A stretch of 64,000 bases of DNA. Source: Owenia fusiformis (taxonomy: Eukaryota > Annelida > Polychaeta > Sabellida > Oweniidae). A program made the position numbers and the translations under genes. Shown here in pieces: positions 302 to 25,290 of this stretch. The number at the start of each line of letters is the position of its first letter. The stretch's first letter is position 1. The stretch covers positions 32,053,151 through 32,117,150 of the forward strand of contig CAIIXF020000003.1 of NCBI GenBank assembly GCA_903813345.2, read 5' to 3'. The notes beneath the pieces are model-generated. The model ran no database searches, was not told the DNA's origin, and saw only the letters and a list, made by a program, of their open reading frames with translations.

Positions 302-1396
302 GTGTCTAATCACTTTTCCAAAGCGTTTGACACGGTGGCTCACGAACGCCTCTTGCTCAAACTCGACTATTATGGAATTCGCAATAATAACTTGAACTGG
401 TTCAGATCCTGGCTTGTGGGAAGATCACAACAGGTAGTGCTCGATGGTGAATCAAGTTCAAAAACTCCAGTAAAATCAGGAGTTCCTCAAGGAACAGTTC
501 TTGGACCACTCTGTTTCCTTGTTTATATCAATGATATGGGCAATAACCTATCATCCTCAGCCAGTCTTAAGCTTTTTGCCGACGACAGCCTTTTATTCAT
601 GACAGTCGAAAGCAAGCAAGATGCATTAACACTACAGGAGAATCTTGATAAACTGGTCTCCTGGGCATCAACATGGCAAATGAAATTCCATCCATCAAAA
701 TGCTATGTGCTAAATATTCACAAAGGTAAATCCCCTATCATGCACAATTACACCATGCTAGGGGAAAACCTTAAGTCGGTAACACACATCCCATACCTAG
801 GAATTGACATCACAAATAACTTACGCTGGACTACACATATTCAAACTATTGTATCCAAAGCCAATAAGGTGCTTGGATTTCTCAGGCGCAACCTCCATCA
901 ATGCCCTGAAAAAGTGAAGGCTCAGGCGTATAAGTCACTAGTCCGGCCTAATTTAGAGTATGCCAGCTCGGCATGGGATCCGTACCGACAAAAAGATATT
1001 GATATGTTGGAACAGGTACAGAGAAGAGCAGCCAGGTTTGTAACCAAATGTCACTCAAGGGAACCAGGCTGCGTCACCAAAGCTCTTCAAGACCTACAGT
1101 GGGAGCCACTGAAGGAGCGTCGAGAGGCTGCTAGAGTTTTCCTTTTCTACAAAGGAAAGCAGAACCTAGCAGCCATCGACGTGCCTCCATACTTCCGCCA
1201 ACAGATCAATACCAACACTAGGTTGTATCATCCTTCTAAGTTCATACAACCATCAACTAGAACGGATGCATACAAATTTAGCTATTTCCCTAGGACAATA
1301 GCTAAATGGAACACTCTACCTGGTGACATCTTAGACTGTGACAGTCTAAGTAGTTTTAAATCATCATACTATGCCTATGTCAATAACTGCAATTAA
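302..1396 (+). CDS. 5'-truncated non-LTR retrotransposon reverse transcriptase (jockey/CR1-like)
   Basis: An open frame of 364 codons that encodes the palm and thumb of a LINE reverse transcriptase. The frame opens with GTG only because the element is truncated, so there is no true start here. Visible motifs in order are palm motif A, SKAFDTV (catalytic Asp at residue 10), motif B, SGVPQGTVLGPL (residues 59-70), motif C, FADD (residues 92-95), and a thumb segment LGIDITNNLRW. The C-terminal part has the usual LPGDILDCDSLSSFK ending of jockey/CR1-type ORF2 proteins. The apurinic-like endonuclease and the finger motifs that normally precede motif A are missing. In a full element the protein copies its own RNA at a nicked chromosomal site. 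No stops interrupt the remaining frame, so the insertion may be fairly young, but the copy is immobile. Family assignment is from motifs only. Confidence 0.9.
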   Translation: MSNHFSKAFDTVAHERLLLKLDYYGIRNNNLNWFRSWLVGRSQQVVLDGESSSKTPVKSGVPQGTVLGPLCFLVYINDMGNNLSSSASLKLFADDSLLFMTVESKQDALTLQENLDKLVSWASTWQMKFHPSKCYVLNIHKGKSPIMHNYTMLGENLKSVTHIPYLGIDITNNLRWTTHIQTIVSKANKVLGFLRRNLHQCPEKVKAQAYKSLVRPNLEYASSAWDPYRQKDIDMLEQVQRRAARFVTKCHSREPGCVTKALQDLQWEPLKERREAARVFLFYKGKQNLAAIDVPPYFRQQINTNTRLYHPSKFIQPSTRTDAYKFSYFPRTIAKWNTLPGDILDCDSLSSFKSSYYAYVNNCN

Positions 1397-14333: not shown

Positions 14334-14803
14334 AGCAATAAACAACACACACCACTGACTAATTAAGGTTCAGCTGGAAAGCAACATTTTGGTAAAAAAT
14401 TGCCATACCTGCACATGTTATTTTCTGGTACAAAATTTTGTATGAAGGCATGTGTGTATTTCCTTGCTTTTTTCAGGAAAGTATCATTACACTGTCTACT
14501 TTAAGTAAACCTGGAAACAGGTCAATGGTAGCTCTTGTGTTGTCCGGAAACTTTGAAAGAAAATTTGGAAAAATAGAAAGTGCGAAATATCAGAATTTCC
14601 TGCAGTTCCCATTGAACTCCTACTAGATATTCTTAAAGAAGACAATGTAATGATACTTTCCTGAAAAAAGCAAGGCAATTGACACATGTCTTCATACTTT
14701 GTTTTGTACCAGAAAATAACATGTGCTGGTATAGCAATTTTTTACCAAAATGTTACTTTCCAGCTGAACCTTAATTAGTCAGTGGTGTGCGTTGTTTATT
14801 GCT
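14334..14803. mobile_element. 470-bp inverted-repeat element
   Basis: The arms are about 165 bp, starting AGCAATAAACAAC and ending GTTGTTTATTGCT, and include matching blocks such as ccactgactaattaaggttc and its complement. A 3-bp GTA flanks both ends (14331-14333 and 14804-14806), which would fit PIF/Harbinger or CACTA-type elements. Short frames inside are mirror images of each other and not genes. Confidence 0.65.
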
Positions 14804-14928
14804 GTACCTTAAGGTCTCATGGAAGTTAACAGGAAGTGACAAAACAAAAAATGACAAAGCCATGCTGGATTTTGAAAATTTTTTGAACCAAGATAACAGA
14901 GTTCTGTTTGGACCTCCAGTCAGTTTAA

Positions 14929-15453
14929 CTAGTTCCACATATTATTTACATGACCAGGAACACAGTTGAAATGGTCAGAATGACCATAAACATGATAGAA
15001 TAACCTTTTCAGCCCTCTGAAAATGTGACTAAAAAATAGCTAAGAGTAGGTGCTCAGGAAAGGTCACTGAACAGAATATTTTGACTTTTTCAGAAAATGT
15101 GCCCAATATATTGCTCTAAATGATACAATTCAAAAAAATTTGATATCATTCTTAGAAAAAGAAAAAATTTAAAAAAACTGAATTGAAAATCGATCTATTT
15201 TCCTTTTTACTACAGCCATTATTGTTTCAGACGATTTTTTAAAATTTCAAAGATTGTGTCATTTAGAGCAATATATTGGACACATATTCTGAAAAAATCA
15301 AAAGATTCTGTTCATTGACCTTTCCTGAGCACCTACTTTTAGCTATTTTTCAGCCACATTTTCAGAGGGCTAAAAAGGTTATTTTATCATGTTTATGGTC
15401 ATTCTGACCATTTCAATTGTGTTCCTGGTCATGTAAATGATATTTGGAACTAG
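14929..15453. repeat. Palindromic module P, first copy
   Basis: A 525-bp imperfect palindrome with ends CTAGTTCCAC and TTGGAACTAG. The arms share ggtcagaatgaccataaac and tatattgctctaaatga blocks. The unpaired centre (about 15130-15250) sets the orientation. Confidence 0.85.
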
Positions 15454-15573
15454 TTAAGGTCTCATGGAAGTTAACAGGAAATGACAAAACAAAAAATGAC
15501 AAAGCCATGCTGGATTTTGAAAATTTTTTGAACCAAGATAACAGAGTTCTGTTTGGACTTCCAGTCAGTTTAA

Positions 15574-16098
15574 CTAGTTCCACATATCATTTACATGACT
15601 GGGAACACAATTGAAATGGTCAGAATGACCATAAACATGATAAAATAACCTTTTCAGCCCTTTGAAAATGTGACTGAAAAATAGCTAAAAGTAGGTGCTC
15701 AGGAAAGGTCAATCAACAGAATCTTTTGATTTTTTCAGAAAATGTGTCCAATATATTGCTCTAAATGACACAATCTTTGAAATTTAAAAAAATTGTCTGA
15801 AACAATAATTGCTGTTGTAAAAAGGAAAATAGATCGATTTTCAATTCAGTTTTTTTTAATTTTTTCTTTTTCTAAGAATGATATCAAATTTGTTTAAATT
15901 GTATCATTTAGAGCAATATATTGGGCACATTTTCTGAAAAAGTCAAAAGATTCTGTTCAGTGACCTTTCCTGAACACAGACTCTTAGCTATTTTTTAGTC
16001 ACATTTTCAGAGGGCTGAAAAGGTTATTCTATCATGTTTATGGTCATTCTGACCATTTCAATTGTGTTCCCGGTCATGTAAATGATATGTGGAACTAG
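15574..16098. repeat. Palindromic module P, second copy, reversed
   Basis: The same length and ends as the first copy, but the asymmetric central segment is its reverse complement, so this copy is in the opposite orientation. Confidence 0.85.
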
Positions 16099-16334
16099 TT
16101 AAACTGACTGGAGGTCCAAACAGAACTCTGTTATCTTGGTTCAAAAAATTTTCAAAATCCAGCATGGCTTTGTCATTTTTTGTTTTGTCATTTCCTGTTA
16201 ACTTCCATGAGACCTTAAACTGACTGGAGGTCCAAACAGAACTCTGTTATCTTGGTTCCAAAAATTTTCAAAATCCAGCATGGCTTTGTCATTTTTTGTT
16301 TTGTCATTTCCTGTTAACTTCCATGAGACCTTAA

Positions 16335-17147: not shown

Positions 17148-17152
17148 AATAT

Positions 17153-18315
17153 CACGGGATGTCATCGCCTGATTTGGTCAATGTTAGGGAGCAGGTCGTT
17201 TTTACAATAAATTTCAATATTTTCACACAAAATATTTTTTTACTGAAAAACTGCTCATTCGCAGAGAAAATGTACTAGCACATGCAATGACAATGTCAAT
17301 CACGCTTCTGTACTAAATTCGGCGGAAGTCTTTTATAATCTAATACGAAGTTACTAAAAAAGGCGCGAACGCCCTACACTCAAAATGATCGTTTTTCCAT
17401 TATAACTTTTTAACGTAATTTAACGAAGGCTTCTAATTATTATCCAAGATAGTCTAAATACCGATTAAATTATTTCTTACTTCAAACAGATACGCCATCT
17501 TTTATTCAATTTTTTAAAAAATAATAAAAAATAACTCTTGTCAATGTTAGGGAGCAGTCAATGTTAGGGAGCAAAATGATTTTATCAGAATATTAAAAAT
17601 GTACCAAATGGCCATTTAAAATATGTATGGCATTTATAAACTGAACAATTTTGTTTGTATGATTATTTGATACCCTTTGCCTTTGGGGAGGAAAGCGTTA
17701 AAATTGTAAGAAAATCATTGAAAATAAAAAATGCAAAATAACCTTTTCAATGATTTTCTTACAATTTTAACGCTTTCCTCCCCAAAGGCAAAGGGTATCA
17801 AATAATCATACAAACAAAATTGTTCAGTTTATAAATGCCATACATATTTTAAATGGCCATTTGGTACATTTTTAATATTCTGATAAAATCATTTTGCTCC
17901 CTAACATTGACTGCTCCCTAACATTGACAAGAGTTATTTTTTATTATTTTTTAAAAAATTGAATAAAAGACGGCGTATCTGTTTGAAGTAAGAAATATTT
18001 TAATCGGTATTTAGACTATCTTGGATAATAATTAGAAGCCTTCGTTAAATTACGTTAAAAAGTTATAATGGAAAAACGATCATTTTGAGTGTAGGGCGTT
18101 CGCGCCTTTTTTAGTAACTTCGTATTAGATTATAAAAGACTTCCGCCGAATTTAGTACAGAAGCGTGATTGACATTGTCATTGCATGTGCTAGTACATTT
18201 TCTCTGCGAATGAGCAGTTTTTCAGTAAAAAAATATTTTGTGTGAAAATATTGAAATTTATTGTAAAAACGACCTGCTCCCTAACATTGACCAAATCAGG
18301 CGATGACATCCCGTG
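17153..18315. mobile_element. 1.16-kb near-perfect palindrome, CACGGG family copy 1
   Basis: Arms of about 575 bp are nearly identical reverse complements around a spacer of about 18 bp near 17735. The ends are CACGGGATGTCATCG and CGATGACATCCCGTG, and both sides carry AATAT (17148-17152, 18316-18320), a 5-bp target duplication. Each arm has caatgttagggagca once near the end and twice in tandem nearer the centre. No coding capacity was seen. The 5-bp duplication and CAC end recall Transib/RAG-like elements. That placement is inference. Confidence 0.85.
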
Positions 18316-18320
18316 AATAT

Positions 18321-23053: not shown

Positions 23054-25290
23054 AAATTATATTGTTATATTTCACTCACCTGCATAGCATTCTATATAGG
23101 CTACAGAGGCTCACCAAAACATCAAACGCAAATACAGTAACCTTAAAATGTTGAAATTTAGTGATTCTTTTCAAAAGAGTGCACCATGTTGTATAGTACA
23201 GGGAAAGAACATCAGAATGTCAAAGATAAAGCAAGTGAATGATTTTGGGTTAGAGCCGTTTTTCTGTTTTGAACATTTTACATTGAGTTCAGTAGGACCG
23301 ATCCCTAAAATTGATTTTTCTCTTAGTTACATCTTCCAAATTGAATATTGTTTTTAAAATTATCTTTATAATACGTTTCTTAACCAATAAAAAAAGGAAA
23401 ATCAAAAATGAATTTTTTATTTCTGTTATATTTCACTCCAACTGCATTAGCATTCTATAGGCTATAGAGGCTGAACCAACCCATCAAACGCAAACAACTG
23501 CAAAATGTTGAAATCATGGAATAATTTAGCGATTTTTTTCAAAAGAGTGCGCCATGTTGTATATTACAAGGAAAGAACATTAGAATGTCAAAAATAAAGC
23601 CAGCGAATAATTTTGGGTTAGAGCCGTTTTTTCTGTTTTGAACATTTCACATTGAGTTCAGTAGGACCGATCCCTAAAATTGATTTTCTCTAAGTTGCAT
23701 CTTCCAAATTGAATATTGTTTTTGAAACTATTTTTATAATACCTTTATTTACCAGGAAAAAGGAAAATCAAAGTTGAAAAATGATTTTTTTATTTTTGTT
23801 ATATTTCACTCCAGCTGCATTGGCATTCTATGGGCTACAGAGGCTCATCAAACCATCAAACGCAAATAACCGTAAAATGTTGAAATCATGGAATAATTTA
23901 GCGATTTTTTTCAAAAGAGTGCGCCATGTTGTATATTACAAGGAAAGAACATTAGAATGTCAAAAATAAAGCCAGCGAATAATTTTGGGTTAGAGCCGTT
24001 TTTTCTGTTTTGAACATTTCACATTGAGTTCAGTAGGACCGATCCCTAAAATTGATTTTCTCTAAGTTGCATCTTCCAAATTGAATATTGTTTTTGAAAC
24101 TATTTTTATAATACCTTTATTTACCAGGAAAAAGGAAAATCAAAGTTGAAAAATGATTTTTTTATTTTTGTTATATTTCACTCCAGCTGCATTGGCATTC
24201 TATGGGCTACAGAGGCTCATCAAACCATCAAACGCAAATAACCGTAAAATGTTGAAATCATGGAATAATTTAGCGATTTTTTTCAAAAGAGTGCGCCATG
24301 TTGTATATTACAAGGAAAGAACATTAGAATGTCAAAAATAAAGCCAGCGAATAATTTTGGGTTAGAGCCGTTTTTTCTGTTTTGAACATTTCACATTGAG
24401 TTCAGTAGGACCGATCCCTAAAATTGATTTTCTCTAAGTTGCATCTTCCAAATTGAATATTGTTTTTGAAACTATTTTTATAATACCTTTATTTACCAGG
24501 AAAAAGGAAAATCAAAGATGAAAAATGATTTTTTTATTTTTGTTATATTTCACTCCAGCTGCATTGGCATTCTATGGGCTACAGAGGCTCATCAAACCAT
24601 CAAACGCAAATAACCGTAAAATGTTGAAATCATGGAATAATTTAGCGATTTTTTTCAAAAGAGTGCGCCATGTTGTATATTACAAGGAAAGAACATTAGA
24701 ATGTCAAAAATAAAGCCAGCGAATGATTTTGGGTTAGAGCCGTTTTTTCAGTTTTGAGCATTTTACATTGAGTTCAGTAGGACCGATCCCTAAAATTGAT
24801 TTTCTCTAAGTTACATCTTCCAAATTGAATATTGATTTTGAAATTATCATTATAATACATTTCTTAACCAGGAAAAAGGAAAATCAAAGTTGAAAAATGA
24901 ATTTTTTATTTTTGTTATATTTCACTCCAACTGCATTAGCATTCTATAGGCTATAGTGGCTGAACCAACCCATCAAACGCAAACAACCGTAAAATGTTGA
25001 AATCATGGAATAATTTAGCGATTTTTTTTCAAAAGAGTGCGCCATGTTGTATATTACAAGGAAAGAACATTAGAATGTCAAAAATAAAGCCAGCGAATAA
25101 TTTTGGGTTAGAGCCGTTTTTTCAATTTTGAACATTTTATATCGAGTTCAGTAGGACCGATCCCTAACATTGATTTTCTCTCAGTTACATCTTCCAAATT
25201 GAATATTGTTTTTGAAATTATTTTCATAATACCTTTCTTTACCAGGAAAAAAAAAATTAAAGTTGAAGAATGTTTTTCTTTATTTTTGTT
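23054..25290. repeat. 372-bp tandem repeat, about six units
   Basis: Units repeat at 372-bp spacing, with equivalent ATGs at 23781, 24153 and 24525. The three central units are nearly identical over their full length and the flanking units are more diverged. Each unit contains cgcaaataaccgtaaaatg, gagtgcgccatgttgtat and cagtaggaccgatccctaaa. The 62-codon frame per unit is a by-product of the repeat. Homogenised centre units with divergent edges are typical of satellite arrays. Confidence 0.9.

What the first reader, a model, noticed from the sequence alone, without database searches (positions are those of the whole stretch)
14809..16334. TTAA-punctuated module array with a self-nested layout
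Seven TTAA sites divide the segment into modules of exactly 112, 525, 112, 525, 112 and 112 bp, ordered H+, P+, H+, P-, H-, H-. H+ and H- joined at TTAA form a perfect 228-bp palindrome centred on CAGTTTAAACTG, and P sits in that central TTAA. The order is explained by a composite H-P-H' inserted into a TTAA of another H-P-H'. Repeated use of the same 4-bp target inside its own copies would give a recursive, growing foldback. TTAA targeting is known for piggyBac and Kolobok; the recursion is inference.
Basis: partly seen in the sequence, partly recalled or inferred. Interest (0 to 1): 0.8.

Follow-up and report, generated by a model that had tools for sequence, protein, structure and literature searches.

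The report
Hairpin transposon nested in its twin
Two copies of a short hairpin-shaped mobile element sit one inside the other at a TTAA site; the single copy is common in this genome, such self-nesting seems more frequent than chance would give, and the kind of event is already known.

Summary
In detail: seven TTAAs at the stated places bound modules of 112, 525, 112, 525, 112 and 112 bp. They are chosen from 16 TTAAs in the segment, and no real H+/H- pair is a perfect palindrome (1-2 mismatches).

It is a nested pair of one ordinary element: a 765-bp palindromic MITE with TTAA duplications and GG...CC ends. The inner copy (15454-16218) sits in an internal TTAA of an outer copy (14809-15457 + 16215-16334), whose halves rejoin to 765 bp. 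The genome holds roughly 490-630 copies. Inner and outer differ by 25 of 765 bases, yet each is 99.2-99.5% like copies elsewhere, which speaks strongly against local duplication.

The nested-insertion reading is supported. P as an insert in an older H-H' is not: no H-H' joint, no P without H in 11 loci checked. Recursion is partly supported: other self-nests exist, one with three family members, but none was seen to move as a unit.

Self-nests, and stacks with another TTAA MITE, occur at certain TTAAs about 10-30 times more often than a uniform-TTAA model predicts. TTAA plus RR termini point to Kolobok; no coding partner was found. MITE self-insertion is known (recalled).

The parts
14809..15457 (-). 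Outer MITE copy, first part (H+ and P+), with TTAA at each end; 649 of its 765 bp
   Evidence: 100% identical over 649 bp to C8:744906, C5:28930255 and C5:25047631
15454..16218 (+). Inner MITE copy, complete, 765 bp with TTAA at both ends
   Evidence: nearest sampled copies 99.2%
16215..16334 (-). Outer MITE copy, remaining part (last H-) with terminal TTAA; 16219-16334 joined to 14809-15457 makes 765 bp
15454..15457 (.). Left TTAA of the inner insertion (internal H/P TTAA of the outer copy)
   Evidence: equivalent junctions seen from both sides at C1, C7 and C11
16215..16218 (.). Right TTAA of the inner insertion
14363..14774 (.). Neighbouring copy of another TTAA MITE (family Q, 412 bp, TTAAGGTTCAGCTGG ends); elsewhere Q copies share a TTAA with this family
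14334..14803 (.). Palindromic flanks (29 bp each side, 28 of 29 symmetric) around the Q copy, as if Q had landed in the centre of another palindrome

Best explanation
The segment is one palindromic, non-coding TTAA-specific MITE inserted in the internal H/P TTAA of a second copy of the same family. Shown: the unit is 765 bp with long inverted arms and TTAA on both sides; the outer copy is interrupted exactly at a TTAA that is now present twice; the two copies belong to different recently active sub-lineages; the same nest type occurs elsewhere with the lineages swapped. Inferred: a transposase supplied in trans, most likely of the Kolobok superfamily (TTAA target, RR...YY termini), cut a copy out of another locus and pasted it into this TTAA. 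Also inferred: such nests are frequent because TTAAs in or at the ends of resident TTAA MITEs are favoured targets (a measured part is a preference for G just outside TTAA) and because insertions there do little harm.
For: Single H-P-H' units are the norm: end motif 493 + 488; 77 complete copies parsed from 97 fetched loci, 45 exactly 765 bp; 75 of 78 sites (the 77 plus the window's outer copy) have TTAA on both sides. The outer copy without the inner and one TTAA is 765 bp. Inner and outer differ by 25 of 765, but the inner is 99.2% like L056 and L097, and the outer 99.5% like at least five other copies. At C1:53144132-53145483 a copy 99.7% like the outer's lineage sits in a copy that groups with the inner's lineage. 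Further nests at the H/P TTAA with both junctions seen: C7:10803928-10805454 and C11 near 28.269-28.271 Mb. Kolobok traits (TTAA, RR termini) are stated in PMC6004289 (passages) and PMC9587614 (part of Results).
Against: No autonomous partner was found: patterns for its ends in a non-MITE context gave 5 hits and 41 hits (with 1 in the reversed control), and the loci inspected (L025, L026, L119-L124) showed no recognisable transposase; no search with a transposase model was run. The assignment to Kolobok rests on four target bases and two terminal bases. The excess of nests is against a uniform-TTAA null that ignores selection and chromatin, and without the window (chosen for its nest) the H/P class alone is weak (2 against 0.19, P = 0.016).
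Confidence: 0.93

Rival explanations
1. Local duplication and inversion (or replication slippage at the palindrome) produced the array from one copy, as proposed for tandem CMITE arrays in corals.
For: Tandem MITE arrays ascribed to slippage are described in PMC2872659 (passages); long inverted arms are prone to rearrangement (general knowledge).
Against: Inner and outer are less alike (96.7%) than each is to copies elsewhere (99.2-99.5%); the breakpoints fall exactly on a TTAA present twice; both units are exactly 765 bp.
Confidence: 0.02
2. The 765-bp element is itself a composite: P, an independent TTAA MITE, landed in the central TTAA of a palindromic H-H' MITE, and the composite then spread.
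For: P begins and ends at TTAA and H-TTAA-H' is nearly a palindrome. Other elements here do sit at TTAA centres of palindromes: Q in the window (28 of 29 flank bases symmetric) and L083 (first 450 flank bases all symmetric). A composite TTAA element born by such an insertion, CMITE-IN, is in PMC2872659 (passages).
Against: 0 H-H' joints at up to 3 mismatches; H lies next to P in all 11 loci fetched because of a P end. In a palindrome every internal TTAA has a mirror TTAA, so the layout needs no insertion.
Confidence: 0.1
3. The nested pair moved as one larger composite transposon.
For: Its outer ends are intact and TTAA-flanked, so in principle it could move.
Against: Only two H/P junctions match exactly in the genome, and they belong to nests with the lineages in opposite order. 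The one pair of similar nests found (C11:11.645 and 11.975 Mb) shares kilobases beyond the nest, which I read as a segmental duplication.
Confidence: 0.03
4. The excess of nests is only regional: TTAA MITEs accumulate in permissive, gene-poor DNA, and exact stacking follows from that.
For: My null is uniform over all TTAAs; selection against insertions elsewhere could give a factor of a few (not measured).
Against: Among flanks of 77 copies, the 4 insertions in family Q are all at its terminal TTAA and none at its two internal TTAAs (a fifth flank, L068, holds a 23-bp Q piece away from the junction). Regional clustering predicts a spread over neighbouring TTAAs, though 4 cases are few. G next to TTAA is preferred also after removing flanks in known elements (38/134 vs 211/1528, p = 4e-5).
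Confidence: 0.3

Closest known systems
MITE multimers / self-insertions in rice and maize (Jiang and Wessler 2001, Plant Cell; recalled, not seen: one library search for it, listed a single citing candidate that I did not open)
   Same: As I recall, more than 10% of rice MITEs were in multimers, some families had many self-insertions, and each multimer was unique.
   Different: As I recall, those were plant families such as Tourist, not TTAA families; here favoured internal sites are located and two TTAA families stack on each other.
Kolobok T2-type MITEs of Xenopus (PMC6004289, passages)
   Same: Non-autonomous, TTAA target, purine-purine termini, high copy number.
   Different: T2 ends carry AGGRR; here GGTCTCATGG. 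No shared transposase shown; the words 'nested' and 'palindrom' have 0 occurrences in that text.
CMITE and CMITE-IN of corals (PMC2872659, passages)
   Same: TTAA MITEs forming arrays, and a new element made by insertion of one TTAA MITE into the TTAA of another unit.
   Different: CC[C/T]T (piggyBac) ends; arrays ascribed to slippage; CMITE-IN is built on 23-bp direct repeats.
KolobokP (PMC9587614: abstract, first of three parts of Results, one Discussion section)
   Same: Kolobok-type ends, multimers, short units able to move alone.
   Different: Long terminal DIRECT repeats of about 450 or 660 bp around a coding region, solo repeats with TSDs of 3-5 bp; here a 765-bp palindrome without coding region.
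piggyBac autointegration (PMC3952818, abstract)
   Same: A TTAA transposon inserting into transposon DNA of its own kind.
   Different: There an excised molecule integrates into itself; here one copy inserted into another copy of a different sub-lineage.

Membership tests
MITE (non-autonomous DNA transposon) | Short, high copy number, inverted termini, no coding capacity | tested here: met
   765 bp, roughly 490-630 copies; no ORF of 150 aa or more overlaps the segment
MITE (non-autonomous DNA transposon) | Constant-length unit with target site duplication | tested here: met
   61 of 77 copies are 764-766 bp; 75 of 78 sites have TTAA on both sides
Kolobok superfamily | TTAA target site duplication | tested here: met
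   trait from PMC6004289
Kolobok superfamily | 5'-RR ... YY-3' termini | tested here: met
   GG...CC; trait from PMC9587614
Kolobok superfamily | Shares its ends with an element coding for a Kolobok transposase | tested here: inconclusive
   No coding partner found by TIR patterns; no search with a transposase model was run
piggyBac superfamily | CC[C/T]T terminal motif | tested here: not met
   Ends are GGTCTCATGG; motif from PMC2872659
KolobokP | Long terminal direct repeats around a coding region | tested here: not met
   Arms are inverted and no ORF of 150 aa or more is present
Nested MITE multimer | Outer element interrupted by a complete inner element, target sequence duplicated, outer halves rejoinable | tested here: met
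   same at C7

The most novel reading that the evidence does not exclude
In this genome the terminal and TIR-proximal TTAAs of resident TTAA MITEs are preferred landing sites for other TTAA MITEs, of their own and of other families. Insertions therefore seed further insertions, and TTAA families grow into stacked arrays, perhaps because transposase bound at resident ends captures the incoming element, or because the target rule (TTAA followed by G) resembles the element's own end.
Probability: 0.3. Interest if true: 0.55.

Novelty: new member of a known kind. Interest (0 to 1): 0.33.

Why it matters
The locus is a clear case of a TTAA MITE landing in its own kind, with a reciprocal case elsewhere in the genome. 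If the preference for TTAAs at resident ends is real, it would be a simple way for cut-and-paste MITEs to build long inverted arrays (arms 321 to 649 bp here) and would give a testable target rule for Kolobok-type elements. As a single locus it is ordinary.

Tried and rejected
H-H' ancestor without P: 0 hits. P as a free element: not seen in 11 of 11 loci fetched because of a P end. Preference for palindrome centres as a general target rule: rejected; the mean symmetric score is 4.25 of 15 at 75 sites against 4.46 at 590 control TTAAs, with one striking exception, L083. A candidate longer element at C4:8243158-8247207 turned out to be a MITE copy with about 3.3 kb inserted near its left end. 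Six loci with MITE-like ends and other interiors (L119-L124) gave no ORF that I recognised as a transposase; this was by eye, without a family search; one of them (L121) is another self-nest. L026 (C7:16239952) has a 28-bp match (92.9%) to the MITE end and a non-MITE interior with possible short exons; Pfam gave nothing for two short peptides, and no fetch was left to extend it. Similar nests at C11:11.645 and 11.975 Mb looked like a mobile composite, but the homology runs kilobases beyond the nest, so I count them as one event. Not done: a search with Kolobok or piggyBac transposase models (genome search used 12 of 12), a genome-wide junction search for insertions in the interior of P, identification of the organism.

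Full report
1. Observation. The seven TTAAs and the module lengths 112, 525, 112, 525, 112, 112 are exactly as stated. The segment has 16 TTAAs in all, so the seven are a chosen subset. H copies differ by 1-2 of 112 bases, P copies by 22 of 525. The perfect 228-bp palindrome is an idealisation; the real H+/H- joins have 1-2 mismatching positions.

2. The unit. A search of the host genome (498 Mb, unnamed) shows that H-P-H' of 765 bp is a repeat in its own right (40 of 1799 candidates scored). Its end motif occurs 493 times forward and 488 times reverse at up to 3 mismatches, with none for the reversed control; the start of P occurs 612 + 643 times. Halving these gives roughly 490-630 copies. 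From 97 loci (L005-L101, of which the first 27 were picked for special features) I parsed 77 complete copies; 45 are exactly 765 bp and 61 are 764-766 bp. With the window's outer copy, 75 of 78 sites have TTAA on both sides. One copy folds into a single long hairpin. No ORF of 150 aa or more overlaps the segment. It is a palindromic MITE. A second subfamily ('B', e.g. L033; 83-86% identical over H and P) is related.

3. The nest. The inner copy is 15454-16218. The outer copy is 14809-15457 joined to 16219-16334, which gives 765 bp. The insertion point is the outer's H/P TTAA (position 646 as read on the plus strand). Inner and outer differ by 25 of 765 bases. Among 83 aligned copies the nearest to the inner are L056 and L097 (99.2%), and at least five copies are 99.5% like the outer. 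The first 649 bases of the outer are 100% identical to copies on C8 and C5. Local duplication would make inner and outer nearest to each other, which they are not. At C1:53144132-53145483 there is a second nest at the equivalent TTAA with the lineages exchanged: its inner copy is 99.7% like L081, L085 and L088, which group with the window's outer copy, and its outer copy (591 bp, with an internal deletion) is 99.7% like L083 and L099, which group with the window's inner copy (branch support not examined).

4. Other self-nests. At the H/P TTAA with both junctions seen: window; C1 (L018); C7:10803928-10805454 (a B copy in an A copy, followed by two Q copies, the second cut by the end of the stretch); C11 near 28.269-28.271 Mb (the outer copy is recognisable to position 601 only). 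One junction seen: C4:11236001 and C3:14880375. The C11 locus is a triple: one outer A with an A at its position-18 TTAA and a B at its position-117 TTAA, and a Q next to its end. The position-18 junction search gave 7 hits: one is an ordinary flank (L100), two are a likely segmental-duplicate pair, leaving 5 events; both junctions are seen in L102, L104 and L107, one in L105. L121, found by another search, is a further one with both junctions. Copies sharing one TTAA end to end: one search gave 4 places, 3 of this family (L016, L027, L028); the fourth (L030) has another end. One search gave 5 hits, 3 real; the other two are chance flanks (L020, L021).

5. A second TTAA family. The foldback beside the finding, 14363-14774, is family Q (412 bp, TTAAGGTTCAGCTGG ends; 650 + 651 ends genome-wide). 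Among the flanks of 77 copies, 4 insertions of this MITE are at Q's terminal TTAA (L043, L062, L066, L073), none at Q's two internal TTAAs; L068 has a 23-bp Q piece in its flank, not at the junction. Genome-wide, one search gave 14 places that join such an end to Q; I count 12, dropping two with a different end (9 of the 12 lie in fetched loci). One search gave 6 places with Q at the position-18 TTAA; in 5 of the 6 fetched loci family sequence continues beyond the pattern, in L129 little more than the pattern itself was recognised. L108, L110 and L111 show complete Q copies beside the MITE, L109 a truncated one. A third end, TTAAGGACAGGGTGC or similar ('R'), also abuts stacks (L018, L107, L121 and the flanks of L022 and L033); it was not studied.

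6. Is it more than chance? With 4.13 million TTAAs (174 in 21 kb of seven arbitrary stretches; the window's density would give 4.76 million) and 630 copies, a uniform model expects at most 0.19 events per site class. From the junction searches: 3 at H/P (2 without the window, which was chosen for its nest), 5 at position 18, 3 end to end; 12 against 0.40 for joins with Q; 6 against 0.20 for Q at position 18. Poisson tails are 1e-3 (0.016 without the window), 2e-6, 1e-3, 2e-14 and 7e-8; ratios are 10-30. The nests found incidentally (C7, C11 at H/P, C3:14880375, L121) are not in these counts. The null ignores selection against insertions elsewhere and target bias. One bias was measured: G just outside TTAA in 46 of 150 flank positions against 211 of 1528 in controls, 38 of 134 after removing eight sites in or beside known elements. 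That is a factor of 2-3, not 30. The interior TTAAs of P were not searched genome-wide, so I cannot say that they are avoided.

7. P as an older insertion. It may still be ancient history. Two loci show TTAA MITEs at palindrome centres: Q in the window (28 of 29 flank bases symmetric), and L083, between flanks symmetric at 450 of the first 450 positions and 47 of the next 50, then no longer. It is not the general rule: the mean symmetric score of 75 sites is not above that of controls.

8. Family. TTAA plus RR...YY termini are given as Kolobok traits (PMC6004289, passages; PMC9587614, abstract, first of three parts of Results and one Discussion section). The CC[C/T]T motif of piggyBac (PMC2872659, passages) is absent. 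No coding partner was found, so I call it Kolobok-like and not a proven Kolobok MITE.

9. Literature. Seven searches of the held library returned no listing that I recognised as describing this element; five papers were opened (PMC9587614 and PMC3952818 by outline and abstract, the first also in the sections named; PMC6004289, PMC2872659 and PMC3903597 by passages). Frequent self-insertion of MITEs is, as I recall, reported for rice and maize by Jiang and Wessler (2001), which I did not see. A TTAA MITE inserted into the TTAA of another unit to make a new element is in PMC2872659. One passage of PMC3903597 points the other way for plants: it says that MITEs serve as targets for other elements far more often than they target other elements. 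The phenomenon is therefore a known kind; I did not meet this family or the site-specific stacking in what I read.

Noticed in passing
window 14334-14803: Family Q MITE (14363-14774) sits at the centre of another palindrome (28 of 29 symmetric flank bases): a second foldback made by TTAA insertion, 5 bp from the nest.
   Followed up: partly
L083 with L115 and L116 (G000:C6:3970500-3973000): A MITE copy stands exactly in the middle of a palindrome whose arms are symmetric at 450 of the first 450 positions and end near 500 bp; an assembly artefact was not excluded.
   Followed up: partly
L112+L102+L113 (C11:28267500-28271500): Stack of Q, outer A, inner A and inner B, joined at TTAAs.
   Followed up: yes
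L018, L107, L121; flanks of L022 and L033: A third TTAA end (TTAAGGACAGGGTGC or similar) abuts stacks of the other two families.
   Followed up: no
L025 (C4:8242700-8247700): A MITE copy with about 3.3 kb inserted near its left end; the insert begins with CCCAGTTGTCCGAAA-like tandem repeats and 10 bp of the MITE occur on both sides of it; the middle was not examined.
   Followed up: no
L026 (C7:16239952, reading leftwards): 28-bp match (92.9%) to the MITE end followed by unrelated sequence with possible short exons; candidate end of a coding partner.
   Followed up: partly
L136+L132+L103 and L137+L133+L106 (C11:11.64 and 11.97 Mb): Two similar regions sharing several kilobases (up to 98% identity), with minisatellite arrays and an old self-nest; some blocks in different order.
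   Followed up: partly
window 17152-18316: Inverted repeat with 573-bp arms, 100% complementary, 19 bp apart: a very young or gene-converted foldback.
   Followed up: no
window 23109-25266: Tandem array with units of about 372 bp, six copies.
   Followed up: no
window 302-1396: Reverse transcriptase fragment (Pfam RVT_1, E 4.8e-21).
   Followed up: no
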